Part shown: positions 1 through 15,400 of the stretch, piece by piece
Layout: each line of letters opens with the position of its first letter
How positions within the stretch are numbered: the first letter of the stretch is position 1
NCBI GenBank assembly: GCA_905182305.1
Contig: CAJJBB010000005.1
Span: forward strand, 186,001 to 250,000
From: Flavobacteria bacterium MS024-2A
GTDB taxonomy: Bacteria; Bacteroidota; Bacteroidia; Flavobacteriales; Flavobacteriaceae
Length of the DNA: 64,000 nucleotides
Direction of reading: 5' to 3'
Notes under the pieces: model-generated
The model's database searches: none
What the model saw: the letters and a program-made list of their open reading frames with translations, nothing else
Told to the model about the DNA's origin: nothing
Made by a program: the position numbers and the translations under genes

Positions 1-2
1 AT

Positions 3-1152
3 AGTCCAGAATTAATAGATTTCTTTGAAAAGGAGTTTTTAAATTCTAAACCCAAAGATTACAATACTGAAAAGTATAACTCCATATTTAGCAAACTAGA
101 AACATCACTACAAGAAGCTAAATTAAGCCACTTATTGCCCATTAAGATGGTTTACTTCAAAACATACACTAATGAGATAGTACGAGCCTTATATGGCACT
201 ACAGGGAAGAATACAGCAACAGAATATCTAAAGAAATTAAATACCATTCTAAAGGATTACGATTCAAATGAATTTAGAGATAAATATTTTGAAAAGTATT
301 ATCAAACTGAAGATAAAAAGCTAAAACGCCCTGTTAAAATAGAATCCGTTAACAACGCAATTAAAAAGATTAATTCACTTAAAAGGTTAGAAGCATTTTT
401 GTTTTGGCTTTATAGTTTCTGTTTAAGGGGTTTAGATGGGCAAGATGTTACTTTAGTAAGTGATGAATTATTAGTTGAAGATTATCCCCTTGCAGATTAT
501 ATTTACGATTTTGATATAGAAGGATATGATATGCCAATTCATATTGAATTAAAGCGTAAAAAAGACTGCTGCAAGAACCTTTACATTACTAATTAATGCT
601 TACCCTACATTAAGTATAAATGAACTTTTAAAAGAAGTTATACGGATCAATAGACCAGATGAGGTTAATGAAGATGATGGCTTAAAACTATTCAAGTGGG
701 ATAGACTAACCAATAAAAGAAAGTGGGATTTGTATGCTGATTTTTTACAAGGTAGATTAACAACGATATTAGGCAATAGTTTTAAATCAACTAGACATAC
801 GTTTACATCAACAGCCGATACACTAGGAGTTGCATTATCAGACCAAAGTGCATTAATAGGTAATAAATCAAGAAAAGGTTCAATAGCATCATATTCTACC
901 ATAGATGAAAAAAGACTTGATTACATACACTTGGATGTATTAGGACAGTATGATATAATAAGAACCTATATAAACCTATTAAAGCACATTAAAGAAACAG
1001 GGTTAATGCAAAATGCTGCAAGAACATTAGACAGCCAAGTATACGAATTGGATAAAACCCAACACCTTGATGAATCTTGGAGAACTATATTAGATAGGGA
1101 AACCTATAAAAGAAGAAAGCGTTCTTTTGATAGTGAGAAAAGATGTGATTAG
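3..1152 (+). pseudogene. Tyrosine recombinase (integrase), frameshifted and 5'-partial
   Basis: This is the body of a tyrosine site-specific recombinase of the Bacteroidota mobile-element type. The frame is open from the window edge, so the N-terminus lies outside. The first part carries the SAM-like core-binding region and the first catalytic arginine in the context YSFCLRGLDGQDV. The second part, in another frame, carries STRHTF (second arginine box) and the presumed nucleophile tyrosine in IASYST. The two parts join only through a +1 shift in the six-A run at about 556-561; joined there they read ELKRKKTAARTF, which fits the beta-hairpin lysine region. The usual HxxR and LGH histidines appear replaced (K and N), so the enzyme may have been decaying anyway. 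An assembly indel in the A run is the alternative. Confidence 0.75.
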
Positions 1153-1210
1153 AGAAAAACTTACTTAATACTCACCCTTTACGATTACAATACTTTGTTT
1201 GCATAAATTC

Positions 1211-1375
1211 TTATAAAGCCATTGTGGGAAAAAAAATATTAAACCGAAACAAAACATATCCTATTGCAGAAAAATATTCTCCATCTATAAGATTTATTAT
1301 AATTACAACAATCCAACCTGATTTTGCAATATAACCCAATATCCGAAAAACCAGTTGAGCAAATTTTGATTTCAT
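1211..1375 (-). CDS. Small hydrophobic protein, 54 aa
   Basis: Reading the minus strand from the ATG at 1375 gives a 54-residue protein. It starts MKSKFAQLVFRILGY, has a central hydrophobic stretch (WIVVIIINLI, about residues 21-30) and ends FFPTMAL. I do not recognise a family. Support comes from its start: the bases around and upstream of its ATG are a near-exact copy of those at the neighbouring lipoprotein gene, so both genes seem to use the same leader. It could be a one-helix membrane peptide. It is short and could also be chance coding created when the leader was duplicated. Confidence 0.4.
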   Translation of the reverse strand: MKSKFAQLVFRILGYIAKSGWIVVIIINLIDGEYFSAIGYVLFRFNIFFPTMAL

Positions 1376-1389
1376 ATGTGTTTAGTATC
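1371..1389 (-). repeat. Direct repeat, copy 1 (gene-start leader)
   Basis: The 19-base sequence ttcatatgtgtttagtatc occurs here and again at 1670-1688 in the same orientation. Read on the minus strand it contains an ATG preceded by GATACTAAACACAT, so each copy places a start codon and its leader in front of a small minus-strand gene. A related AACACATAT-ATG context precedes the serine recombinase at 1883 on the other strand. Confidence 0.8.
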
Positions 1390-1422
1390 TATCAAGGTTG
1401 ATTAGGGTTTATTTCTTCCATT

Positions 1423-1674
1423 TTAATAACAGTTTTTCTCTTGCATTTTTGAATCAATATAACTCATTAAATTAGCTGTTCCTGTTCCTGTTCTTGCTCT
1501 TTGGTTGTCAGAATTAGCTTCTGCAATATTAAAGTGGTATTGTAATTCATCACAATTAGAAGAATTAATTATTGCTTTTAAACTTGAACTATATTTAGAC
1601 CAATCAGGTTCAGAACTTAAATCCCCACAGCTAAAAAATATAATAGTTAGTAATAATAGTCCTACTTTTTTCAT
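1423..1674 (-). CDS. Small predicted lipoprotein, 83 aa
   Basis: The protein begins MKKVGLLLLTIIFFSCGD, a short lipoprotein signal with a lipobox-like FFSC placing the lipidated cysteine at residue 16. It should therefore be exported and membrane anchored. The remaining ~67 residues are polar with a second pair of cysteines (NCDEL and the C-terminal KNCY) that could form a disulfide. I do not recognise the family. It sits between a recombinase remnant and a serine recombinase, so it is probably cargo of the mobile region. The start is supported by the duplicated leader sequence covering its ATG. Confidence 0.6.
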   Translation of the reverse strand: MKKVGLLLLTIIFFSCGDLSSEPDWSKYSSSLKAIINSSNCDELQYHFNIAEANSDNQRARTGTGTANLMSYIDSKMQEKNCY

Positions 1675-1688
1675 ATGTGTTTAGTATC
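1670..1688 (-). repeat. Direct repeat, copy 2 (gene-start leader)
   Basis: Second copy of the 19-base sequence found at 1371-1389. It covers the ATG of the small lipoprotein gene. The two copies are about 300 bases apart and flank that gene, so recombination between them would remove or duplicate it. Confidence 0.8.
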
Positions 1689-1882
1689 CTTTAGTGAATC
1701 ACTATTCCTGATAACACCTTGTGTATAAACTCTTAAAGTATACTTGTTGTTTTATAATTTTTCAGAACCATTTAATACTAAATAAGGGGTATAAAGTTTA
1801 TAACGTTAAAAATAGTAGTTTAATACGTTAACCTTATAAAGTTTTAAAATAAATTTATATATTAGCTTTAAAGAACACATAT

Positions 1883-2509
1883 ATGAAACCTGCAAAGTAT
1901 GAAAGGGTAAGTACTAAAGAACAAAGTACTGCAAGGCAAAGACTAACTAAATTAGAAGATGGTACACCTGTTTTAGAAGTAGTAGATAAGTGTAGTGGTG
2001 TAATTCCATTCAAGGAACGTGATAATGCCCCAAAACTCCTTGTAATGGCTCAACGTGGCGATATAGATACGTTAATGGTACATTCAATTGATAGGTTAGG
2101 AAGGAACACTATAGATATACTTAAAACAGTTCAGGAATTTACTGAAATGGGCGTTAATGTAGTTTCTAAAACTGAAGGATTACAAACGCTTATTGATGGT
2201 AAAGAAAATCCTACTACAAAGATGATTCTATCTATAATGGCTACCCTTGCAGAGTGGGAATTGAAGAATAGTAAAGAACGTCAAGCTGAAGGTATAGAAC
2301 GTGCAAGGAAGAATGGTAGGTATAAGAATAACGGTGGCAATAAACCTAAAGAAACTACAGAACAGTTTTTTAATAAATCTAATGTGCAAATGTGCTTAAA
2401 AGAACTAAAGAATGGTGAGTCTATTAACCGTGCTTCAAAGATTGCAGGAGTATCATACCCTACTGCTCAAAAGGTTTTAAGACTTGCAGAGATTGAAGGA
2501 ATGTTGTGA
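1883..2509 (+). CDS. Serine recombinase (resolvase/invertase family)
   Basis: A 208-residue small serine recombinase. The N-terminal catalytic domain shows YERVSTKEQ with the nucleophile serine at residue 10, then the conserved DTLMVHSIDRLGRN segment (helix D/E region with the catalytic arginines), and ILSIMATLAEWE before the long E helix with ERQAEGIERARKNGRYK. The C-terminus (about 165-208) is a helix-turn-helix for site binding: INRASKIAGVSYPTAQKVL. Length and domain order match the Tn3-resolvase/invertase class rather than large integrases. The start ATG is preceded by an AACACATAT leader resembling the duplicated leader of the two nearby minus-strand genes. It is the only intact recombinase in the window. 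Its target (res site, inversion or excision) cannot be told from sequence. Confidence 0.9.
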   Translation: MKPAKYERVSTKEQSTARQRLTKLEDGTPVLEVVDKCSGVIPFKERDNAPKLLVMAQRGDIDTLMVHSIDRLGRNTIDILKTVQEFTEMGVNVVSKTEGLQTLIDGKENPTTKMILSIMATLAEWELKNSKERQAEGIERARKNGRYKNNGGNKPKETTEQFFNKSNVQMCLKELKNGESINRASKIAGVSYPTAQKVLRLAEIEGML

Positions 2510-2521
2510 TGTAATTGGCGA

Positions 2522-3481
2522 CTATTGTCTTAAATTTTTATACTTCTGCTTAATGAGAAACATTATATAATCAATGTCCGTATCCTTAAAGATAGATACT
2601 TTATATACAGTTCCTTTAGCACCACTTTTCCAAGTCCAAGAATCTTCTTTAGCAATCTTTTTTGGGTCATCAAGAATAAAGTAGTTTTTTGATGTTCTCC
2701 CATCTGTATATACATTACCCCTTGAAAAATCAACCCTTATACCTTTCTTTTGAAAGTTGAAATAAGCAATAGTTTTATTTTTTTTATCTTCAAAAAGTAG
2801 GCTTATATACTGTCTTTTTGGAACTATTTCAACACCATCTAATTCAATCATCAATTCTTTCAGTTCATTCCATTTCTCAACAATTGAATCATCTGATTTT
2901 GATAAGTGGTCTTGTTCTGTAAATACTTTTACTTCCTTGTTTATCTCACTAAAGGCATTATTCTTTTTTGTATCAGTTAGCGAACCAATACTTTCATTTG
3001 AATTTGATTTGTGTTTATTAAATACAATTGTGTTGTTTGTAAACCTTTTAATTTCCCAAAGTTCAAATGGTAGGTTATCAAAATTTACACTATCCTTTTG
3101 GTAAGAATTAAATGATTCAGCTACAAAAATTATTTTAGATTGCGACCAATCAACATCTTTCATTTCAAGAACCTTACCCTTGTGTTGAGATAGCCTTAAT
3201 AAGAAATCCGCCTTATTATTAAGCATTAGTTGCAAGTAGGTCATTCCTTGGTCTACAACAGAATAGCTACTTCCTTTTTTATACTCTACAATTACAAAGG
3301 AATTGTTTTCAAGGTCAAAGCAAAGAGTATCTATCCTGTATTTCTCAACCCTAAATTCTGATTCTATAAAATCTAATTCAAAAATTGATTCGGTATTCTT
3401 TTCTACTAATGCTTGAATATCCTTTTCAAGTTTAAAAGGTACAAGATTAACTTCTTCAAGATTTTCTTTGTTTAAATTGTC
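2522..3481 (-). pseudogene. NucS-like nuclease with DUF5655 domain, 5'-truncated
   Basis: An ATG-initiated reading would begin at 3244, but the coding frame continues upstream with clear homology and no ATG, GTG or TTG. It contains PFKLEKDIQ, then RIDTLCFD and VIVEYKKG, the PD-(D/E)XK nuclease core of the NucS-like proteins, followed by VVDQGMTYLQLML. The C-terminal ~100 residues (YISLLF, YFNFQKKGIRV, DIDYIMFLIKQKY) match DUF5655. Known relatives are predicted DNA-binding or DNA-cutting proteins often found on mobile elements. Only the first ~10 residues seem lost, at a junction near 3480 where an unrelated plus-strand fragment begins. Internal initiation at the ATG at 3244 would remove the catalytic core. 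It converges with the serine recombinase, 12 bases away. Confidence 0.7.
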
Positions 3482-3703
3482 TCTGGAGGAAATGAAAATG
3501 AATTTATTTTTGTCTATGCATTTGATGATTTTACAGAGCAGGGAAAATTTCCAAATACGGATAAATCGTTAAAAGAACTATATAATGAAATGTATAACGG
3601 TTCATATGATAAGGATTTAGATGTTTATAATGATGCGATAGAAATGTCAGGTAGACGACGAGAAACACTATCTTTAATTCCAAAGCTTTCAACAGAATTA
3701 TAG
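3476..3703 (+). pseudogene. 3' fragment of an unidentified plus-strand gene
   Basis: An open frame without a start codon runs into a TAG stop and reads like real coding sequence: EFIFVYAFDDF, then KFPNTDKSLKELYNEMYN, ending LSLIPKLSTEL. I do not recognise the family. Its beginning coincides with the lost 5' end of the NucS-like gene on the other strand. The simplest reading is that the mobile region to the left was inserted into, or recombined with, this gene, leaving only its last ~74 codons. Confidence 0.4.
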
Positions 3704-3758
3704 AATACACATATCGAATTTCAGAAATTAATATCGTTTTAAAATACTTTTAATTTTC

Positions 3759-3789
3759 AACCCTTTAATTAAGTTTATAGGGTTTTTTT
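3759..3789 (+). terminator. Intrinsic terminator-like hairpin, unit A
   Basis: AACCCT pairs with AGGGTT across a 14-base loop and is followed by a run of seven T. The same design (AACCC...GGGTT plus T tract) occurs after the two secreted-protein genes downstream. Confidence 0.55.
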
Positions 3790-3790
3790 A

Positions 3791-3890
3791 TTAATCCACA
3801 GGCATATCCCCTTCAGTAAGTTCTACAATTCACTTTACCAAGAATAAAACAAGCTACTAATGAAGTGATTGAAGACTTGCCGTTGTTTGT
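3791..3890. repeat. Dispersed repeat, copy A (about 100 bases)
   Basis: Starts at taatccacaggcatatc just after a terminator and continues through aagctactaatgaagtg to ttgccgttgtttgtt. It aligns along its length with copy C (5560-5655) with scattered substitutions, and its first ~35 bases align with copy B (4911-4942). On the minus strand the three copies share a stop-terminated frame reading ELTEGDMPVD here. This suggests the repeat derives from the 3' end of a convergent gene. It lies directly upstream of the promoter and leader of the 306-residue secreted protein. Confidence 0.75.
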
Positions 3891-3919
3891 TAAGTAAGTT
3901 CTGGGATTTGTTATATTTG
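3887..3919 (+). promoter_or_regulatory. Bacteroidota-type promoter
   Basis: TTG at 3887-3889, a 22-base spacer and TATATTTG at 3912-3919 match the Bacteroidota sigma-A pattern TTG-N(17-23)-TAnnTTTG. It would start transcription near 3923 and drive the secreted-protein gene beginning at 3948. Confidence 0.5.
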
Positions 3920-3925
3920 AGCATT

Positions 3926-3942
3926 ATTAATCATAAATCAAT
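3926..3942 (+). repeat. Shared leader sequence, copy 1
   Basis: attaatcataaatcaat lies here, five bases before the ATG at 3948, and again at 4963-4979 before the ATG at 4984. The similarity continues into the first codons of both genes (aaaATGAAxAAAAT), so the two genes share their 5' leaders as well as their 3' flanks. Confidence 0.75.
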
Positions 3943-3947
3943 TTAAA

Positions 3948-4868
3948 ATGAAGAAAATTATTTTATTATTATTTACCATTCCAGTAATCGCTTTTGCACA
4001 GAAAAAAAATAATGGAAAGGTTTACGATAAACATCCCGCAATAGATACCGCTCACAAGTTTGGTCAAGCCTGGATAAGCGGAGACATCGAAACACTTAAA
4101 AGTTTAGCAGGAGAGGGATTTAAAATGGCGAGTTCAATGAATAATAGTCCAAACTACAAGGGTGGAGACATCAATAATCTTCTTGGCCAATCTTCTTGGA
4201 TGAAAAAAAACTTTGTTAATATTTCCTTAAAAAATAGAGGACAGGCTTATTCGGATGCAATAGAGTATAAAAAATCAGGTCTTTTTGTTCAGACATTTCA
4301 AGAATTTATTGCTTGGGATAAAAATAATGGATTTAAAATAAGAACCCCTTTTAACGGAATCTTTGTATTTGATAAAAAAGGAGAGAAAATAGTTCGTTTT
4401 TGGTGGTCTGACAATCAAGCAGCATGGCAAAAATGGAATCTTTCTAGAGAAACAATTAAAAATGGAGTAGTGTTTAAAGACCATCCTTTTATCAGTAAAT
4501 TGAGAATGGTTTGGTATAATTTAGAACAGGGTAATGTTGAAGCTACTTTTCAGGATTTTTCTCCCAACGCAAAAATTTATGATAGTAATTTAATTGACAA
4601 GGATTTCAATTCTTTAGAAGAACAAATAGAAAATGTTAAAAATATCTTCAAAACCTTTGATTTATTATCAATTGATGAGGTTGGATTCCCTGATTATATT
4701 GATTATGAAGGTAGTGGAGGAGTTGTAATGTCCTGGTGTAATATGACAATGAAAAACAAGAAAACAGGGGAAATTAAAGTGCTAAAAGTGCACAGTCAAA
4801 TGTCATTTAACGATTCAGGGTCAATTGTGCGGGAAGATTTATATTACAATTCTAATATTTTAAATTAA
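3948..4868 (+). CDS. Secreted protein with two NTF2/SnoaL-like domains
   Basis: A 306-residue protein with a Sec signal peptide (MKKIILLLFTIPVIAFAQ, likely cut after AFA). The mature part appears to hold two related halves of NTF2/SnoaL-like fold. The first starts near residue 30 (HPAIDTAHKFGQAWISGDIE) and the second near 178 (HPFISKLRMVWYNLEQGNVE); both show the 'helix, then G-(D/N)-(I/V)-E' opening typical of the fold. No catalytic residues can be assigned. SnoaL-like proteins range from isomerases to ligand-binding stress proteins, so the role is open. The gene has its own promoter and terminator and lies between two copies of a repeat shared with the next gene. Confidence 0.7.
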   Translation: MKKIILLLFTIPVIAFAQKKNNGKVYDKHPAIDTAHKFGQAWISGDIETLKSLAGEGFKMASSMNNSPNYKGGDINNLLGQSSWMKKNFVNISLKNRGQAYSDAIEYKKSGLFVQTFQEFIAWDKNNGFKIRTPFNGIFVFDKKGEKIVRFWWSDNQAAWQKWNLSRETIKNGVVFKDHPFISKLRMVWYNLEQGNVEATFQDFSPNAKIYDSNLIDKDFNSLEEQIENVKNIFKTFDLLSIDEVGFPDYIDYEGSGGVVMSWCNMTMKNKKTGEIKVLKVHSQMSFNDSGSIVREDLYYNSNILN

Positions 4869-4883
4869 TACTTAATTTTAAAG

Positions 4884-4910
4884 ACCCTTCCAAGCGGAGG
4901 GTTTTCTTTT
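4884..4910 (+). terminator. Intrinsic terminator-like hairpin, unit B
   Basis: ACCCTTCC and GGAGGGT form an imperfect stem with a short loop, followed by TTTCTTTT. It ends the 306-residue secreted-protein gene and directly precedes repeat copy B. Confidence 0.6.
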
Positions 4911-4942
4911 AAACCCCAGGCATATCATCTTCTGTAAGTTCT
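4911..4942. repeat. Dispersed repeat, copy B (short form)
   Basis: aaaccccaggcatatcatc followed by ttctgtaagttcttta aligns with the start of copies A and C, then diverges into the leader of the next gene. The minus-strand frame reads ELTEDDMPGV before the stop. Confidence 0.65.
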
Positions 4943-4962
4943 TTATTGTTACCTTCAATTCT

Positions 4963-4979
4963 ATTAATCATAAATCAAT
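4963..4979 (+). repeat. Shared leader sequence, copy 2
   Basis: Exact 17-base copy of attaatcataaatcaat, four bases before the ATG of the 166-residue secreted protein. No TAnnTTTG box lies just upstream, unlike copy 1. Confidence 0.75.
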
Positions 4980-4983
4980 CAAA

Positions 4984-5484
4984 ATGAAAAAAATACTTTT
5001 AGTTACAGCCCTTCTTTTTATGTCCAATGCATTTGCAACTGACGATGAAGACACCTTTAATCAACTTAAACAACTCGAGGGTAAATGGGTGGGAACAATT
5101 AATTATTCCAATAGAGACGCTGAACCTATAAACTTACAGTATAGTATCCGTTCAAATGGAAGCGCACTTTTAGAAGAGAGTAATGAGGGAGGTACTGAAA
5201 TGATGACTATTTTTAACCTTCACAATGATAATATTTTAGCAACACACTATTGTGCAGCACAAAACCGCCCTGTTGCAGAGCTTAAATCCAATAAAAGTGG
5301 AATTATAAGTTTAGTGACAAATCAAGCAAAAAGCGGATTGGACTCAAATAAAGAGATGTTTGTTGAATCTTGGGAACTAAATCTAATGCTGGAAAATAAA
5401 GACATATTTATTTATGAATACAAAACTATTGGTCCAGATGGTTCAGGTTTCACTGCCAAAGCTGAAATGAAACGAGTAAAATAA
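4984..5484 (+). CDS. Secreted lipocalin-like protein (DUF1579-like)
   Basis: A 166-residue protein with a signal peptide (MKKILLVTALLFMSNAFA). The mature part begins with LKQLEGKWVGTINY, the opening strand typical of small lipocalin-like or DUF1579-type beta barrels. It continues with GTEMMTIFNLH and ATHYCAAQNRP, which resemble conserved positions of that group. A ligand-binding or periplasmic stress role is possible but not shown. The gene lacks an obvious promoter box and may be read from upstream through the weaker terminator B. It shares leader and 3' flank with the preceding gene but not its protein sequence. Confidence 0.7.
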   Translation: MKKILLVTALLFMSNAFATDDEDTFNQLKQLEGKWVGTINYSNRDAEPINLQYSIRSNGSALLEESNEGGTEMMTIFNLHNDNILATHYCAAQNRPVAELKSNKSGIISLVTNQAKSGLDSNKEMFVESWELNLMLENKDIFIYEYKTIGPDGSGFTAKAEMKRVK

Positions 5485-5526
5485 TTAGTCTATCTGTTTT
5501 AAACTATAGCTTAATTCTTAAGCAAG

Positions 5527-5558
5527 AACCCTCTAATTATTTTCAGAGGGTTTTCTTT
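5527..5558 (+). terminator. Intrinsic terminator, unit C
   Basis: AACCCTCT and AGAGGGTT form a perfect 8-bp stem around a 10-base loop, followed by TTCTTTT. It ends the 166-residue secreted-protein gene and precedes repeat copy C. Confidence 0.8.
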
Positions 5559-5559
5559 T

Positions 5560-5655
5560 AAACCACAGGTATATCATCTTCAGTGAGTTTTACAATACAC
5601 TTTAACAAGAATGAAACAAGCCACTAGTGAAGTGAGTGAAGACTTGCCTTTGTTT
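5560..5655. repeat. Dispersed repeat, copy C
   Basis: Begins aaaccacaggtatatcatc and runs to ttgcctttgtttata, aligning over nearly its whole length with copy A (3791-3890). The minus-strand frame reads KLTEDDIPVV before the stop. It stops at the 3' end of the glycosyltransferase gene on the minus strand, so it marks the right edge of the repeat-bearing region. Confidence 0.75.
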
Positions 5656-5659
5656 ATAC

Positions 5660-7066
5660 CTACTTAATTTTTTTTTTAATGTACCTATATAGAGCTCTTT
5701 TCTTGTGCGACCTTATTAAGGTTAATTTTAGTTTAATATGAGGGGCAACTTGTTTCCAGCGTTTATGGCTAATCAGGATGTAAAAATCCTGAGGTTTTAA
5801 TGTAAGCTTATCAAGAGTAAAGCTATTTACTTTTTTGATATTCCCTTTTGTGTAAAATTGACTTGAATAGCTTTTAAAATCTAAAGTATAGATGTTTGTA
5901 TTTTTAATTTCACTCACTAAATATTTATCAGTATTATTTTCAAGTAACGGATTTGCAAAACCACTTAGGTATATAACCAGAAGTAAGACTGGAATTATAA
6001 GACCAATTTTAAGGAAAAGAACTCTCGCTTTAATTTCGAACCAATAATTATGAATCCATAAAGCCATTGGAATAGTTACAGGAAGAATATAGGGATGTAT
6101 AAGGCTTTTAGAAGTAGTAAAAAACAATGGTGTCCAAACAATCCAAGTGAGTAAAAATAAAGCCCAAGAATTTGTTTTTAATTTTTTAAAATTTTTCCAT
6201 AAAGTTTGAATAAAAATAAGAGACCAAGGCAAGCAAAAGATCAACAGAAACCCCCAAACAATTCCAAAGGGTTGTTGCTTGGCAAACCCATATTTATCAC
6301 CTACCCATCCTGAATTAAAATAACGGTTAAAATGTTCGCCTACAATAAAATAATCTATAAATCCAGGCGAGGCTGCTTCCGCTAGAAAATACCAGGGTAA
6401 CGCAATTAAAATAATTAAAAAACTCCCCAACACCCAGGGGGCTTTTTTTAATGAGCTTATTAAATTATTTTGAATTAGACACCAAATCAAAATAGGGGGT
6501 AAGGTAAGGACAACAATAATAGGTCCTTTTGCAAGAAGTCCCAATCCAAGACCTAAAAAAAAAAGATATCCCCAAGCGGTAGAGGCTTTTTTTTGGATGC
6601 TTTTCCAAAAAGACAGCATTACAACCGTTATGCTAAGAGTCAGGAAAACATCTGTAGAGACTACACCAGAATGTAAATAAAATTCCGGAAGACTTAAAAG
6701 GATGATACCAGGTAAATAAGATGAGTTAGTACGTTTTTGACCAAATTTCCCAATCCACCATCCAATAAAACCACAAACTAATAAATAAGGAAGACGAACA
6801 AAAAACGCACTGTCATCAAAAAGAGTTATACTTAAAGCACTAGCCCAGCTTGACAATGGAGGTTTTGCCCAAAATGGAACTCCATAATCAATTTGAAGTA
6901 CAACCCAGTTTTGGGTCTCGGCCATTATCCTTGCAATTTCAGCATACCGTGCTTCTGTTTTATCCATTAAAGGAATAACGATATTTAGAAACCCTCTAAT
7001 AAGTAGTAACACCCAAAATATAATCCGTAAAGTTTTGTTGCTTTCTAATTTGGAAATTCGAATCAT
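5660..7066 (-). CDS. ArnT-like glycosyltransferase, PMT/GT83 type
   Basis: A 468-residue polytopic membrane protein. The first periplasmic loop has the family's catalytic acidic motif as DKTEARYAEIAR (about residues 35-46), followed by PFWAKPPLSSW, typical of ArnT-like enzymes. These take a sugar from a polyprenyl-phosphate carrier and add it to lipid A, glycans or proteins on the outer face of the inner membrane. About a dozen hydrophobic segments follow, with a short C-terminal soluble part. The start overlaps the end of the upstream GT2 gene by four bases, suggesting translational coupling. The pair would make and use a polyprenyl-phosphate sugar; the acceptor is unknown. Confidence 0.85.
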   Translation of the reverse strand: MIRISKLESNKTLRIIFWVLLLIRGFLNIVIPLMDKTEARYAEIARIMAETQNWVVLQIDYGVPFWAKPPLSSWASALSITLFDDSAFFVRLPYLLVCGFIGWWIGKFGQKRTNSSYLPGIILLSLPEFYLHSGVVSTDVFLTLSITVVMLSFWKSIQKKASTAWGYLFFLGLGLGLLAKGPIIVVLTLPPILIWCLIQNNLISSLKKAPWVLGSFLIILIALPWYFLAEAASPGFIDYFIVGEHFNRYFNSGWVGDKYGFAKQQPFGIVWGFLLIFCLPWSLIFIQTLWKNFKKLKTNSWALFLLTWIVWTPLFFTTSKSLIHPYILPVTIPMALWIHNYWFEIKARVLFLKIGLIIPVLLLVIYLSGFANPLLENNTDKYLVSEIKNTNIYTLDFKSYSSQFYTKGNIKKVNSFTLDKLTLKPQDFYILISHKRWKQVAPHIKLKLTLIRSHKKRALYRYIKKKIK

Positions 7067-7791
7067 CTGTAATGTCTGTATATTTTTAATAAATCAAACC
7101 AGACTTTGATCCCATAAAATAGTGATACCTTACTGTTTTCTGAGTCAATCCATGATGAAAGCGGCACCTCTAAAATCTTAGTTTGTATTTTAGTCCTCCC
7201 AAAATGGTTGATTAGGCGATAGAAGATTTCCACGTCAAATAACCAGCGTGTTAAAAATGCTTCATTAAATATCAATGTTACCCATTCTCTAGAAAATATT
7301 TTACAGCCACATTGTGAATCATAAATGGGGAGTCTCAACATTTTTGAAATAAAAGTAGCAATGATACGTCCAATGATAAAGCGATGAGTTTTACGTCGTA
7401 TGTTATTGTCTAGCTTTTTAATGCGCGATCCAAAAACAAAAGAAGTTTCTTTTGTTAATTTTTCTGAGAGGAGAATGCATTCTTCTATTGAGGTTGATAA
7501 ATCAGCATCTAAAAAAGCAAAGCGGTCAAATTTATTATTTTTAAGCGCACTGTTCATTCCTAGTCTTACAGCAGCTGCTTTTCCTTCGTTTTTCTTTTGG
7601 TTTATAACACTGATATTTTTAGGGAACTTAATTCGCAAGTCTTCTAAAATAGAATCAGTATTATCAGAAGATCCATCATTTACAAAATAAATTGATACGG
7701 CAGAATGTTTTTTTACAAATGAAACAAAACGATTCACTGGAAAACGTGATGCTTCATTGTAACAAGGAATAATTATAGCGGTATGAACCAT
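7063..7791 (-). CDS. GT2 polyprenyl-phosphate glycosyltransferase
   Basis: A 242-residue DPM1/ArnC-like family 2 glycosyltransferase. It opens with TAIIIPCYNEASRF (nucleotide-binding strand and loop). The metal-binding DXD-type motif appears as FLDADLS around residue 100, after VNDGSSDN, and GSRIKK follows. It probably transfers a sugar from a nucleotide sugar to polyprenyl phosphate on the cytoplasmic face. The ATG at 7791 is preferred over an in-frame TTG nine bases upstream because relatives start close to the IIIPCYNE strand. It is the first gene of a two-gene operon with the ArnT-like enzyme. Confidence 0.87.
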   Translation of the reverse strand: MVHTAIIIPCYNEASRFPVNRFVSFVKKHSAVSIYFVNDGSSDNTDSILEDLRIKFPKNISVINQKKNEGKAAAVRLGMNSALKNNKFDRFAFLDADLSTSIEECILLSEKLTKETSFVFGSRIKKLDNNIRRKTHRFIIGRIIATFISKMLRLPIYDSQCGCKIFSREWVTLIFNEAFLTRWLFDVEIFYRLINHFGRTKIQTKILEVPLSSWIDSENSKVSLFYGIKVWFDLLKIYRHYR

Positions 7792-8030
7792 TGAAATCAA
7801 CTTAAATAAATAATAAAACTATAAAGAAATTAAAAAAAATTCATTGAGATTCTATTAAGACTAAAATACCCTATTAGTTCAGTTTTTGTGATATAAATAA
7901 ATATAGGCATTCTTAGTATAAAAATTTGAATTTTAGTGTTTTGAATACTCCTTGAAATGATTTATAAACAAAAAGCAGTTAATTATGTTATTTTTTTCGA
8001 TAAAAAGCGTAAGTGATTAAAAAAAATTCA

Positions 8031-8038
8031 TAAATTTG
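8031..8038 (+). promoter_or_regulatory. -7 promoter box of tuf
   Basis: TAAATTTG matches the Bacteroidota -7 element TAnnTTTG and would start transcription about 30 bases before the tuf ATG. No TTG is seen at the proper distance upstream, so only one element is supported. The rest of the ~280-base gap between the divergent genes is AT-rich with no other recognisable feature. Confidence 0.45.
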
Positions 8039-8072
8039 CGCTCCTAAAAATAACATTGAAACAACAATAATT

Positions 8073-9260
8073 ATGGCTAAAGAGAAATTTGACAGGTCGA
8101 AACCCCACTTAAATATTGGAACTATTGGTCACGTAGACCATGGTAAAACAACCCTAACTGCGGCAATTACAAAAGTACTTGCTGATCAAGGTTTTTCAGA
8201 AGCTAGTAGCTTCGATCAAATAGATAATGCTCCTGAAGAAAAAGAGCGTGGAATTACAATTAACACTTCACATGTAGAATACCAAACGGCAAATCGTCAT
8301 TATGCCCACGTTGACTGTCCAGGTCACGCCGATTATGTAAAAAACATGGTTACTGGTGCTGCTCAAATGGATGGTGCTATCCTTGTTGTTGCTGCAACTG
8401 ATGGTCCTATGCCACAAACTAGAGAGCATATATTATTAGGCCGTCAGGTAGGTATACCACGTCTTGTTGTTTTTATGAATAAAGCAGACATGGTTGATGA
8501 TGAAGAATTAATTGAATTAGTTGAAATGGAAGTACGTGAATTACTTTCTTTTTACGACTACGATGGAGATAATTCTCCTGTAGTTTTAGGATCTGCACTT
8601 GGCGCTCTTAATGGAGAACAAAAATGGGTTGATTCGGTTATGAAATTAATGGAAGAAGTTGATACTTGGATTGAACTTCCCAAGCGTGATGTTGAAAAAG
8701 ACTTTTTAATGCCTGTTGAGGATGTTTTCTCAATCACAGGACGTGGAACTGTTGCAACAGGTAGAATTGAAACTGGAGTAGCTAATACAGGTGACGAAAT
8801 AGACATCATTGGTATGGGTGCTGAAAAATTGAAATCCACAATTACTGGGGTTGAGATGTTTCGTAAAATTTTAGATAGAGGAGAAGCAGGAGATAACGTA
8901 GGAATTCTTTTAAGAGGTATTGAGAAAAGCGATATCACAAGAGGAATGGTAATGTGTAAATTAGGCTCTGTAACACCACACGCTAAGTTTAAAGCTGAAG
9001 TATATATTCTTAAAAAAGAAGAGGGTGGACGTCACACACCATTCCATAACAACTACCGACCTCAGTTCTATGTTAGAACGACTGACGTTACGGGAAACAT
9101 TATGCTTCCTGATGGAGTTGAAATGGTGATGCCAGGAGATAACCTAACAATTAACGTTGATTTGATTCAGCCAATTGCCTTAAGTATTGGATTGCGTTTT
9201 GCAATTCGTGAAGGAGGAAGAACAGTAGGTGCGGGACAGGTTACGGAGATCCTAGACTAA
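8073..9260 (+). CDS. tuf: Elongation factor Tu
   Basis: The 395-residue GTPase that delivers aminoacyl-tRNA to the ribosome. The G1 P-loop GHVDHGKT is at 19-26, the switch region RGITIN follows, then DCPGHADY (G3, about 81) and NKAD (G4, about 136). Domains 2 and 3 are complete, with [11 protein letters not shown] and the C-terminal [10 protein letters not shown]. Length is normal. It opens the conserved tuf-trnW-secE-nusG-rpl-rpo block, but an intrinsic terminator follows, so the downstream genes are likely transcribed at a lower level. Confidence 0.98.
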
Positions 9261-9289
9261 CCAAAAATGTTTTTAATATGATACTCCAA

Positions 9290-9316
9290 GGTATCCCGTT
9301 TTACGGGATGCCTTTT
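9290..9316 (+). terminator. Intrinsic terminator after tuf
   Basis: GGTATCCCG and CGGGATGCC pair (one G-T pair) around TTTTA and are followed by TTTT. It separates the highly expressed tuf gene from the tRNA and secE. Confidence 0.8.
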
Positions 9317-9329
9317 GTGTCACATAAAA

Positions 9330-9402
9330 ACGGGTTTAGCTCAGTTGGTAGAGCACTGGTCTCCAAAACCAGGTGTCGGGAGTTCGAGCCTCTCAACCCG
9401 TG
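9330..9402 (+). tRNA. trnW: tRNA-Trp (CCA)
   Basis: A complete cloverleaf can be folded by hand. The acceptor arm pairs ACGGGTT with AACCCGT, the D arm is GCTC...GAGC, and the anticodon arm CTGGT/ACCAG has the loop CTCCAAA and anticodon CCA. The T arm is GGGAG/CTCTC with TTCGAGC, and the discriminator is G. The 3' CCA is not encoded. A tRNA-Trp between tuf and secE is the usual bacterial arrangement. Confidence 0.95.
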
Positions 9403-9423
9403 CATAATTAGAAAAAGTAAAGC

Positions 9424-9618
9424 ATGCAACTTTTTATATCATATATTAAAGATTCTTTCGAAGAATTAAAAAACAATGTTTCGTGGACAGAGCGTTCCGA
9501 ATTACAGCGACTAGTTGTTGTTGTACTTGTTTTTTCAATTTTGTTTTCCCTTGCGATTTGGGGAGCAGATACAGTTCTTTCAAGAATTATTCAATTTTAT
9601 TTCAACTTGATCGGTTAA
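9424..9618 (+). CDS. secE: Preprotein translocase subunit SecE
   Basis: A 64-residue SecE, the small essential subunit that clamps SecY in the inner-membrane translocon. An amphipathic N-terminal helix (FISYIKDSFEELKNNVSW) is followed by one membrane segment at about 30-55 (LVVVVLVFSILFSLAIWGA). This is the short, single-span form. It sits between tRNA-Trp and nusG and stops two bases before the nusG ATG, so the two genes are almost certainly co-transcribed. Confidence 0.95.
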   Translation: MQLFISYIKDSFEELKNNVSWTERSELQRLVVVVLVFSILFSLAIWGADTVLSRIIQFYFNLIG

Positions 9619-12473: not shown

Positions 12474-15400
12474 ATGCCTAGTAAACAAAGCCAAAGAACA
12501 AATTTTGCCGGAGCTAAACATACTCCAATGTACCCGGATTTCCTGGATATTCAGATTAAATCTTTCCAGGACTTTTTCCAACTAGAAACCAAATCTGACG
12601 AACGTAACGAAGAAGGACTTTTCAATACGTTTAAAGAAAATTTTCCAATCACCGATACAAGAAATCAATTTGTTTTAGAGTTTATCGACTATTTCGTTGA
12701 TCCTCCACGATACTCTATTCAAGAATGTATAGAACGTGGTTTAACTTATTCCGTCCCCTTAAAAGCGCGTTTAAAATTATACTGTACTGATCCTGAACAT
12801 GAGGATTTTGAAACTATAGTACAAGACGTTTTTTTAGGAACAATACCATACATGACACCAAGCGGTACTTTTGTAATCAATGGTGCGGAACGAATTGTAG
12901 TTTCTCAACTTCACCGTTCTCCAGGTGTATTTTTTGGCCAATCTTTCCATGCCAATGGAACTAAATTATATTCTGCTCGAGTAATTCCTTTCAAGGGTTC
13001 TTGGATTGAATTTGCGACTGATATTAATAGTGTAATGTACGCATACATTGATCGTAAGAAAAAACTACCTGTAACGACTCTTTTCAGAGCCATTGGTTTT
13101 GAATCTGATCGTGATATCCTAGAAATATTTGATCTTGCAGAAGAAATCAAAGTCTCTAAAACAGGACTTAAAAAAATATTAGGCAGAAAATTAGCGGCAC
13201 GTGTTTTAAAAACATGGCATGAAGATTTTGTAGACGAAGATACTGGTGAAGTAATTTCTATTGAAAGAAATGAAATCATAATTGATCGTGATACTATTAT
13301 TGAGAAAGAGCATGTTGAAGAAATTCTTGGAGGAAATGTTAAGAATGTCTTATTGCATAAAGTTGATGCACACTTGTCGGACTATGCGATTATTTACAAC
13401 ACTTTACAAAAAGACCCGACAAACTCAGAAAAGGAAGCCGTAGAACATATTTATCGTCAATTACGTAATGCGGAACCACCAGATGAGGATACTGCACGTG
13501 GAATTATTGACAAGTTATTCTTCTCTGATCAACGTTATAACCTTGGTGAGGTTGGACGTTACAGGATGAATAAAAAATTAGGCCTAGATATTGGAATGGA
13601 CAAGCTAGTGTTAACAAAGCTTGACATTATTACTATCATCAAATATTTAATAGAGTTGATTAACTCAAAAGCAGAGATCGATGATATTGACCACTTATCT
13701 AACAGACGCGTCCGAACGGTAGGAGAACAATTATCTTCTCAGTTTGGTGTAGGACTAGCAAGAATGGCAAGGACCATTCGTGAGCGTATGAACGTTCGTG
13801 ACAATGAAGTGTTCACTCCTATAGACTTGATTAATGCAAAAACACTGTCATCTGTTATTAATAGTTTCTTTGGAACTAACCAGTTATCTCAGTTTATGGA
13901 TCAAACTAATCCTTTAGCAGAAATAACCCACAAGCGTCGTCTTTCTGCCCTAGGACCAGGAGGCCTTTCTAGAGAACGTGCAGGGTTTGAGGTTAGAGAT
14001 GTACATTACACTCACTACGGAAGATTATGTCCTATTGAAACACCTGAAGGACCTAATATTGGACTAATTTCTTCATTAAGTGTTTTTGCTAAAGTAAATA
14101 ACCTTGGATTTATTGAAACTCCTTACCGTAAGGTAGAAAATGGAATCATAAATCTTAAGGAAACAATTTATTTAAGTGCAGAGGAAGAAGAAAATCAATT
14201 AATCACTCAAGCGAACATAAACTTTGACAAGGCTGGTAAAATTCTTGACGAAAAAGTAATTGCAAGAGATCAAGCTGATTTCCCTGTTGTTGGTCCAAAT
14301 CAAGTAAATTATACTGATGTTGCTCCTAACCAAATAGCTTCTATTTCAGCATCCCTAATTCCATTCTTGGAGCATGATGATGCCAATCGAGCATTAATGG
14401 GGTCAAACATGATGCGCCAGGCTGTTCCTTTATTACGTCCTGAAGCTCCTATTGTTGGAACTGGATTAGAAAAGCAAGTAGCTTCAGATTCTCGTGTTTT
14501 AATTAATGCTGAGAACGATGGAGTTGTAGAATATGTAGATGCTAATAAAATCACGATTAAATATGATTATTCTGATCAAGATAATTTAATCAGCTTTGAC
14601 GGAGACACTAAATCATACAACTTGATTAAGTTTAGAAAAACAAATCAGGGTACTTGTATCAATCTAAAACCAATCATTAAAAAAGGAGATAAAGTTACAA
14701 AAGGACAAGTATTATGCCAAGGGTATGCTACAGAATCTGGTGAACTAGCTTTGGGAAGAAACTTGAAAGTAGCCTTCATGCCTTGGAAGGGATATAACTT
14801 TGAGGATGCGATTGTGATTTCAGAAAAAGTAGTACGCCAGGATATTTTCACCTCTATTCATATAGATGAATATTCTTTAGATGTACGCGACACTAAACTT
14901 GGTACTGAAGAGCTAACAAATGACATTCCAAATGTTAGCGAAGAAGCAACTAAAGATTTAGATGAAAACGGAATGATTCGTATAGGTGCAGAAGTGAATC
15001 CTGGTGATATTTTAATCGGAAAGATCACTCCAAAAGGAGAGTCAGACCCTACACCAGAAGAAAAATTGTTGCGTGCTATCTTTGGAGATAAAGCGGGTGA
15101 TGTTAAAGATGCTTCTTTAAAAGCACCACCATCATTACGCGGAGTTGTAATTGATAAAAAATTATTTACACGCTCTGTAAAAGATAAACGTAAAAGAAAC
15201 GATGATAAATTAGAGTTAGAAACATTAGAAGACTCTTTTGATGATAAATCCGATGCTTTAAAAGCAGTATTAGTTGAAAAACTATTTACTGTTGTTAACG
15301 GTAAAACATGTCAAGGAGTTCAAAATGATTTAGGTGAAGAGATTTTGCCAAAAGGGAAAAAGTATTCGCTTAAGCTACTTGCTTCTGTGGAAGACTACAC

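What the first reader, a model, noticed from the sequence alone, without database searches (positions are those of the whole stretch)
3759..5655. Two secreted-protein genes set in repeated flanks, like cassettes
Three co-oriented repeat copies (3791-3890, 4911-4942, 5560-5655), each just after a terminator of the same AACCC...GGGTT design, bracket two genes for exported proteins. These two genes also share a 17-base leader and first codons but not protein sequence. Genes exchanged between constant flanks would produce this pattern. It could be a cassette-like acquisition site, duplicated 3' and 5' regions with different inserts, or a family of exported proteins that diversify in place. A neighbouring serine recombinase offers a possible mover (inference).
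Basis: partly seen in the sequence, partly recalled or inferred. Interest (0 to 1): 0.6.

Follow-up and report, generated by a model that had tools for sequence, protein, structure and literature searches.

The report
Integron-like gene cassettes in marine flavobacteria
The repeats around these two genes look like the junction sites of a gene-swapping system that resembles, but does not match, the integrons that spread resistance genes; its likely engine is an enzyme whose own gene ends in the same site.

Summary
The repeat core is a 35-bp site (TAAACCACAGGCATATCATCTTCAGTAAGTTC[TA]GG), found 56 times in this genome and in 33 of 38 genomes of the genus, mostly in one-way arrays with different small genes between copies. 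On the other strand the site is the 3' end of a tyrosine recombinase gene. Full-length copies lie in 5 of 38 genus genomes, none in the own assembly; further sites follow the gene end in the three whose contig goes on. At the same locus the closest of nine compared relatives has a 94% identical flank but unrelated cargo. Genes are reshuffled between arrays, and some are 92-98% identical at DNA level to another genus where a 3-kb core gene is 79%. Best reading: an integron-like cassette system, independent of IntI, whose recombinase acts on a site inside its own gene end. No activity was shown; all evidence is comparative. The serine recombinase is not supported as mover. Related recombinases occur in 20 of 395 Flavobacteriales genomes, with repeats of their own 3' end in 9 of 16 testable loci. 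No description was found in the open-access library searched.

The parts
3758..3783 (+). terminator-like inverted repeat before site 1
   Evidence: sequence by eye; not found by the strict scan
3792..3826 (+). recombination site 1 (35-bp core; head of a long composite copy, 3792-3890)
   Evidence: matrix score 50.0; repeat family
3827..3890 (+). composite tail of site 1: remnant of the 3' end of a 70-aa gene ('gene B', ..EDLPLFVK stop)
   Evidence: sequence; full-length gene B copies elsewhere
3925..3950 (+). shared leader of cassette 1
3948..4868 (+). cassette 1 gene: exported protein of 306 aa, no Pfam family
   Evidence: distant homologue G050:C1:90890, 26% over 153 aa
4884..4905 (+). terminator of cassette 1
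4910..4944 (+). recombination site 2 (short form)
   Evidence: matrix score 48.1
4962..4986 (+). shared leader of cassette 2
4984..5484 (+). cassette 2 gene: exported protein of 166 aa; 62% homologue on the contig that carries a full recombinase gene in genome G049
5526..5552 (+). terminator-like inverted repeat of cassette 2
   Evidence: sequence by eye; not found by the strict scan
5559..5593 (+). recombination site 3 (head of a long composite copy to 5655)
   Evidence: matrix score 44.1
5594..5655 (+). composite tail of site 3 (gene B 3' end); array edge
5660..7066 (-). conserved chromosomal flank: PMT-family glycosyltransferase; the alignment with G007 resumes at 5668
   Evidence: PF02366; 94.1% over 5668-9300; 91% aa
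1883..2509 (+). serine recombinase (resolvase) in the neighbouring mobile-element region; not the likely mover
   Evidence: PF00239

Best explanation
The window holds a short array of mobile gene cassettes. A typical cassette here is site - leader - one small gene (often exported) - terminator - next site. The 35-bp site is a copy of the 3' end of the gene of a tyrosine recombinase of about 350 aa, on the opposite strand; in genomes with the full gene, further sites follow downstream of the gene's last codons. Inferred mechanism: the recombinase recombines the site in its own 3' end with sites at cassette ends, so cassettes are excised and inserted site by site, as in an integron, and each insertion beside the recombinase gene rebuilds its C-terminus. 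Shown by comparison: sites, arrays, site at the gene end, different cargo at one locus, reshuffling, transfer between genera. Inferred: that this enzyme does it, circular intermediates, and the cut point within the site. In the present genome no copy of the enzyme gene was found, so its arrays may be stranded, fed in trans, or the gene may lie in an assembly gap.
For: Site count: 56 in this genome, 33 of 38 genus genomes. Sharp borders, about 35 bp, over 133 unique sites. In the stretches read from 24 genomes 89 of 102 neighbouring sites under 4 kb apart point the same way, median spacing 970 bp (binomial P 4e-15). Site on the other strand = ..LTYLRGLEIPELTEEDMPVV-stop of a PF00589 recombinase. 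Full genes in G017, G021, G045, G049, G015, split frame in G010. Further sites downstream of the gene end: 4 in G021, 5 in G049, 1 in G010 (plus 4 upstream of it), 1 in G017, 4 in G608; in G045 and G015 the contig ends there. Within the genus, codons identical given the same residue: last 11 codons 78/82, the 11 before 86/100, rest 724/1541. Same locus, different cargo: flank 94.1% over 3634 bp in G007, cassettes unrelated; no site between the same flanking genes in G001 and G023. Five genes in four consecutive G007 intervals map to four separate places in G000. 8 of 13 homologous interval pairs (3 gene families) align to within 90 nt of both sites. G000-G151 homologues 97.8, 94.8, 93.9, 91.7% DNA versus 79% for a 3-kb core gene.
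Against: No experiment, no circular intermediate, no polymorphism within one strain. Only 5 of 38 genus genomes hold a full-length gene although 33 of 38 hold sites. The cut point is not resolved. A test for coding selection on the pooled sites was not significant (P 0.20), and another frame had a higher synonymous share (0.52 vs 0.32). In the wider set of 19 recombinases the 3' end is only mildly more conserved at DNA level (1234/2282 vs 9429/21877) and is not the top window. 7 of 16 testable recombinase loci outside the family show no repeats of their 3' end in the stretch fetched; the nearly complete G034 has one weak 30-nt second copy. Of the four cross-genus pairs, one (93.9%) does not end at sites, and in another homology runs about 60 nt past a site. 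5 of 13 interval pairs do not align to both sites. 13 of 102 neighbours are in opposite orientation. Some cargo pairs are plain paralogues.
Confidence: 0.72

Rival explanations
1. Tandem accretion: whole integrative elements, each with its own recombinase, insert one after another at the recombinase gene's 3' end; later deletions leave the 3' ends as scars between leftover genes. No cassette-by-cassette exchange.
For: Some sites keep 34-79 codons of recombinase remnant; an 11-kb mobile-element region lies between two sites at this locus; related recombinases outside the order show no repeats of their 3' end.
Against: In 101 of 133 sites the recombinase frame stays open for under 30 residues and the border is sharp; single-gene units align site to site; genes that neighbour each other in one genome are scattered in another.
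Confidence: 0.17
2. Homologous recombination between dispersed repeats (sites, leaders, terminators) shuffles genes without any dedicated recombinase.
For: Leader and terminator modules are shared too; in two of four cross-genus pairs homology does not stop at sites.
Against: A 35-bp imperfect site is short for this; 89 of 102 neighbours have one orientation; it does not explain why the repeat is a recombinase gene end in several families.
Confidence: 0.08
3. A classical integron, or a cluster of attC sites that lost its IntI.
For: Array anatomy and cargo are the same in kind. Three genus genomes hold another recombinase with 113-131 bits to the IntI model (not followed up).
Against: 0 of 38 genomes pass the IntI model cut-off of 265 bits; the site-bearing recombinase scores 21-30 bits; no conserved long hairpin in the sites; the site ends GTTC[TA]GG, unlike the GTTRRRY box (recalled). 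Of the three genomes with the IntI-like gene, one (G018) has no site.
Confidence: 0.03

Closest known systems
Integrons (IntI / attI / attC; PMC8618304, passages read)
   Same: tyrosine recombinase next to a one-way array of small mobile genes, each with one recombination site; arrays without a recombinase also occur (like CALINs)
   Different: recombinase is not IntI by profile; site is a short copy of the recombinase gene's own 3' end with no attC-like fold seen; array lies downstream of the gene; many cassettes share leader and terminator modules
dif modules of Acinetobacter (XerCD; PMC6449649, abstract and outline read)
   Same: small genes moved between short tyrosine-recombinase sites
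   Different: a dedicated recombinase rather than XerCD (inferred); sites mostly in one orientation, while dif sites alternate (recalled)
Phage/ICE-type tyrosine recombinases with an arm-binding domain (classification in PMC8138268, passages read)
   Same: PF00589 catalytic domain; predicted N-terminal three strands plus helix before the core domains
   Different: associated with cassette arrays instead of one element

Membership tests
Integron | IntI-type integrase (TIGR02249 above cut-off) | tested here: not met
   0 of 38 genus genomes over the cut-off; site-bearing recombinase 21.4 and 29.5 bits vs 265
Integron | attC: imperfect palindrome that folds as a single strand | tested here: inconclusive
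   no clear excess over shuffles for the three window copies (best z -0.98); 36 long copies give only a 6-pair local hairpin. No attC covariance model was run
Integron | tandem array of small cassettes, one site each, same orientation | tested here: met
   89 of 102 neighbours same orientation; of those 89 intervals 46 hold one ORF of 45 aa or more, 21 two, 3 none; longest ORF along the site in 73 of 86
Integron | integrase gene with attachment site at the head of the array | tested here: met
   G021, G049, G608; weaker in G010 and G017, one further downstream site each
Integron | recombinase-catalysed excision and insertion | not testable with these tools
   needs an assay; only comparative exchange is shown
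dif modules | sites in alternating orientation (recalled) | tested here: not met
   89 of 102 neighbours in the same orientation
dif modules | XerC/XerD dif-like site sequence | not tested
   dif consensus not scanned
Tyrosine recombinase (PF00589) | catalytic R, K, R, H, Y residues | tested here: met
   PF00589 E 8e-11; invariant R208, K236, R299, H300, H322, Y331 in 19 sequences (role of these columns by recalled family pattern)
Arm-binding-domain recombinases | N-terminal three-strand/one-helix domain | tested here: inconclusive
   predicted strands 10-13, 19-25, 28-32 and helix 49-69, mean pLDDT 87.7; full lambda Int aligned over 9-342 but rmsd 12

The most novel reading that the evidence does not exclude
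An integron-equivalent that arose separately: a phage/ICE-type recombinase domesticated into a cassette-capture platform in small-genome marine Flavobacteriales, with its recombination site inside its own coding end, so that every cassette taken up beside it rewrites the enzyme's C-terminus. Cassettes, and perhaps the recombinase, move between genera and families.
Probability: 0.5. Interest if true: 0.9.

Novelty: new variant of a known kind. Interest (0 to 1): 0.8.

Why it matters
Integrons are the textbook case of cassette capture and have one recombinase family and one kind of site. A second solution with another recombinase and another kind of site, in abundant ocean bacteria, would show the design evolved more than once, would be missed by finders built on IntI and attC, and would explain how streamlined flavobacteria swap exported proteins. 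A cultured isolate (Ca. Arcticimaribacter forsetii AHE01FL; abstract of PMC9122927) carries at least two sites, so it is testable.

Tried and rejected
Rejected: serine recombinase as mover (no link of sites to it found; a fragment of a similar gene lies in one other array). attC-like hairpin of the long form: folding of window copies not clearly better than shuffles and no conserved long stem. A transposon with two outward gene ends and an inner deletion: the full recombinase genes read here have no gene B beside them. Coding selection on the pooled sites: not significant. First structure model with 5 sequences was poor (pLDDT 61.6); the second with 19 was used. Rfam: only a tRNA in window 1-9500. 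IMG/VR pattern scan for the site: none. Phage and plasmid collections, recombinase protein: only remote partial matches. IMG/VR protein scan: 5 distant loci, 26-30%. Class-level relatives G698 and G1013 show no repeats of their 3' end in the stretch read, beyond a 20-nt match at E 0.04. The IntI-like genes of G018, G047 and G006 were not followed up. Families absent from the fold list were not taken as excluded.

Not in print as far as searched: (integron/cassette terms; organism names; dif modules) in the open-access library; subscription papers and preprints are not covered. Papers: PMC9122927, PMC2668756, PMC8138268, PMC8618304 passages only; PMC6449649 abstract and outline; all others as search listings.

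Full report
What is there. The window's repeat was searched in 40 genomes: 22 matches in the own genome (1.86 Mb, 11 contigs), matches at E 0.01 in 18 of 25 genomes of the genus and 1 of 15 outside. Many copies lie in series. Two forms exist, long (as at 3792 and 5559) and short (as at 4910). Over 133 unique copies with at most 5 mismatches, information content is high over 35 bases only, T|AAACCACAGGCATATCATCTTCAGTAAGTTC[TA]GG, and falls off on both sides. A matrix from these copies scores them 27-63 and gives 0 hits of 14 or more in 1.0 Mb of reversed sequence. A sequence-only model finds 56 copies in this genome and at least one in 33 of 38 genomes of the genus. In the family, 6 of 299 genomes in 4 of 236 genera match with at most 3 mismatches. 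A scan of about 85,000 species genomes gives 25 stretches, all in records titled Flavobacteriaceae, Cryomorphaceae, Flavobacteriales or named members (MS024-2A, UBA980, Ca. Arcticimaribacter forsetii).

Arrays. In the stretches read from 24 genomes there are 170 sites with a matrix score of 20 or more; of 102 neighbours under 4 kb apart, 89 point the same way, median spacing 970 bp (P 4e-15 against one half). Of these 89 intervals, 46 hold one ORF of 45 aa or more, 21 two, 3 none; the longest ORF follows the site's direction in 73 of 86; 57 of 86 have a signal-like N-terminus by a crude rule. Of ten cassette proteins scanned, five had any Pfam match at E 0.01: SnoaL-like, DUF4440 or InlB-repeat domains. 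A leader (TATTAATCATAAATCAATTAAAATG) recurs 19 times with at most 3 mismatches in the own genome, control 0; comparing with the sites, 14 of the 19 lie within 200 bases downstream of a site.

What the site is. On the other strand the site reads PELTEDDMPVV-stop, and in two loci this frame stays open for over 210 residues: it is the end of a tyrosine recombinase..LYSFRHSGAIDIFKRTGSITKLQKAMGHSSINVSLTYLRGLEIPELTEEDMPVV (PF00589). A search of 38 genus genomes finds it in 12: open frames of 348-365 aa in G017, G021, G045, G049 and G015, a split frame in G010, fragments in six; none in the own genome at E 1e-8. Downstream of the gene end lie 4 further sites in G021, 5 in G049, 1 in G010 within the 2.8 kb read (and 4 upstream of the gene), 1 in G017; in G045 and G015 the contig ends there. 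Among the five full genes, codons for the same residue are identical in 78 of 82 cases over the last 11 codons, 86 of 100 over the 11 before, and 724 of 1541 over the rest: the gene end is held, or kept alike, at DNA level, as a recombination site would be. In 19 recombinases across the order the contrast is weak (1234/2282 vs 9429/21877) and another window scores higher, so each lineage seems to have its own site sequence.

Exchange. At the window's locus the right flank is 94.1% identical to G007 over 3634 bp, starting at 5668, just after site 3; to the left only sites, leaders and signal-peptide starts match, and G007 carries other cassettes there. In G001 and G023 the glycosyltransferase gene (PF02366) sits about 0.7 and 1.3 kb from the S30AE gene (PF02482) beside xerD, with no site scoring 18 or more; G021 has other sites and genes there, in mixed orientation. 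Five genes in four consecutive intervals of G007 (C26, 53733 to 57534) have their homologues at C6:1.4k, C6:224k, C1:157k (two) and C6:214k in G000, 84-94% aa. Of 13 homologous interval pairs, 8, from three gene families, align to within 90 nt of both sites (my count). Against G151, of another genus, four homologues are 97.8% (726 nt), 94.8% (483), 93.9% (1625) and 91.7% (638) identical, while 3 kb of the 1269-aa gene at 12474, taken as rpoB by position and size, is 79% identical: recent transfer between genera. Of these four, the 93.9% pair does not end at sites, and in the 97.8% pair the match runs about 60 nt past a site.

How wide. The recombinase family is found at E 1e-30 in 20 of 395 Flavobacteriales genomes, 8 of 109 genera, in four further families, and in 2 of 395 genomes across the phylum, both outside the order, whose stretches show no arrays. 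Of 20 loci fetched, 16 have more than 400 nt downstream; 9 of these, some with only the 3' part of the gene, show nearby repeats of the gene's own 3' end at E 1e-7 or better. G608 (contig CATIQX010000212.1 by length) has a full gene followed by four further copies, each keeping up to 66 bp of the gene end. In a tree, G017 groups with G608 (99/99) and G049 with a second G608 copy (100/98) although they belong to different families. Either the recombinase moves between families or these short contigs are misbinned: G608 is a 230-contig assembly with 5% contamination.

What kind of enzyme. It falls below the IntI, XerC and XerD cut-offs. The AlphaFold model (mean pLDDT 87.7) matches XerA, Tre/Cre, IntI4 and Tn1549 integrase about equally (Z 15.5-16.1), so fold does not choose among them. 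The predicted N-terminal strands and helix suggest an arm-binding domain, which the classification in PMC8138268 (passages read) ties to phage and ICE recombinases; simple ones such as IntI lack it.

Mechanism. I think the enzyme recombines its own gene-end site with cassette-end sites, giving one-way arrays beside the gene, and that arrays without the gene are stranded or served in trans. Shown: sites, arrays, gene-end identity, exchange. Inferred: the enzyme's role, circles, cut point. About a quarter of sites (36 of 133) carry an extra tail from the 3' end of a 70-aa gene; why is not known.

Membership. It works like an integron but fails one tested defining feature (IntI profile) and shows no support for another (attC fold), so I do not file it as one.

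Limits. Most genomes are metagenome assemblies, and many recombinase contigs end just past the gene; arrays nonetheless lie inside long contigs (G001, 1.13 Mb) and two sites lie in the isolate's chromosome. Contig-length matches link some handles to named records (for example G007 to CAJQQG01, G151 to CAJIYH01, G052 to the MS024-2A bin FRAM18_bin210); this is inference, and so is the genus, probably that of MS024-2A (NS5_D in PMC9122927, passages).

Noticed in passing
window 3-596 and 730-1152 (L014 15198-16653): A phage-type integrase in two frames, beside a second tRNA-Gly(tcc)/tRNA-Thr(ggt) pair (L014 14910-15067) that repeats the pair at 5361-5518: an integrative element between two cassette sites.
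   Followed up: partly
L016 9781-9993 and relatives: A 70-aa gene family (..GVPNK..EDLPLFV) whose 3' end is fused to 36 of 133 sites; several full copies lie in or near arrays.
   Followed up: partly
L018 from 6657, L039 from 5770: A shared cassette start with a conserved, apparently non-coding stretch (..CGTACCAACCGAT..CTCGAGACACGGTGG..) in two genera; might be a structured RNA.
   Followed up: no
window 1370-1389 and 1669-1688: Identical 20-base repeats near two small minus-strand ORFs.
   Followed up: no
L020 4774-5085 (G000:C6:217773): A fragment 82.7% like the window's serine recombinase between sites of another array region.
   Followed up: no
G018:C55, G047:C66, G006:C46 (L033-L035): Recombinases with 113-131 bits to the integron integrase model, below its cut-off, in three genomes of the genus.
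   Followed up: no
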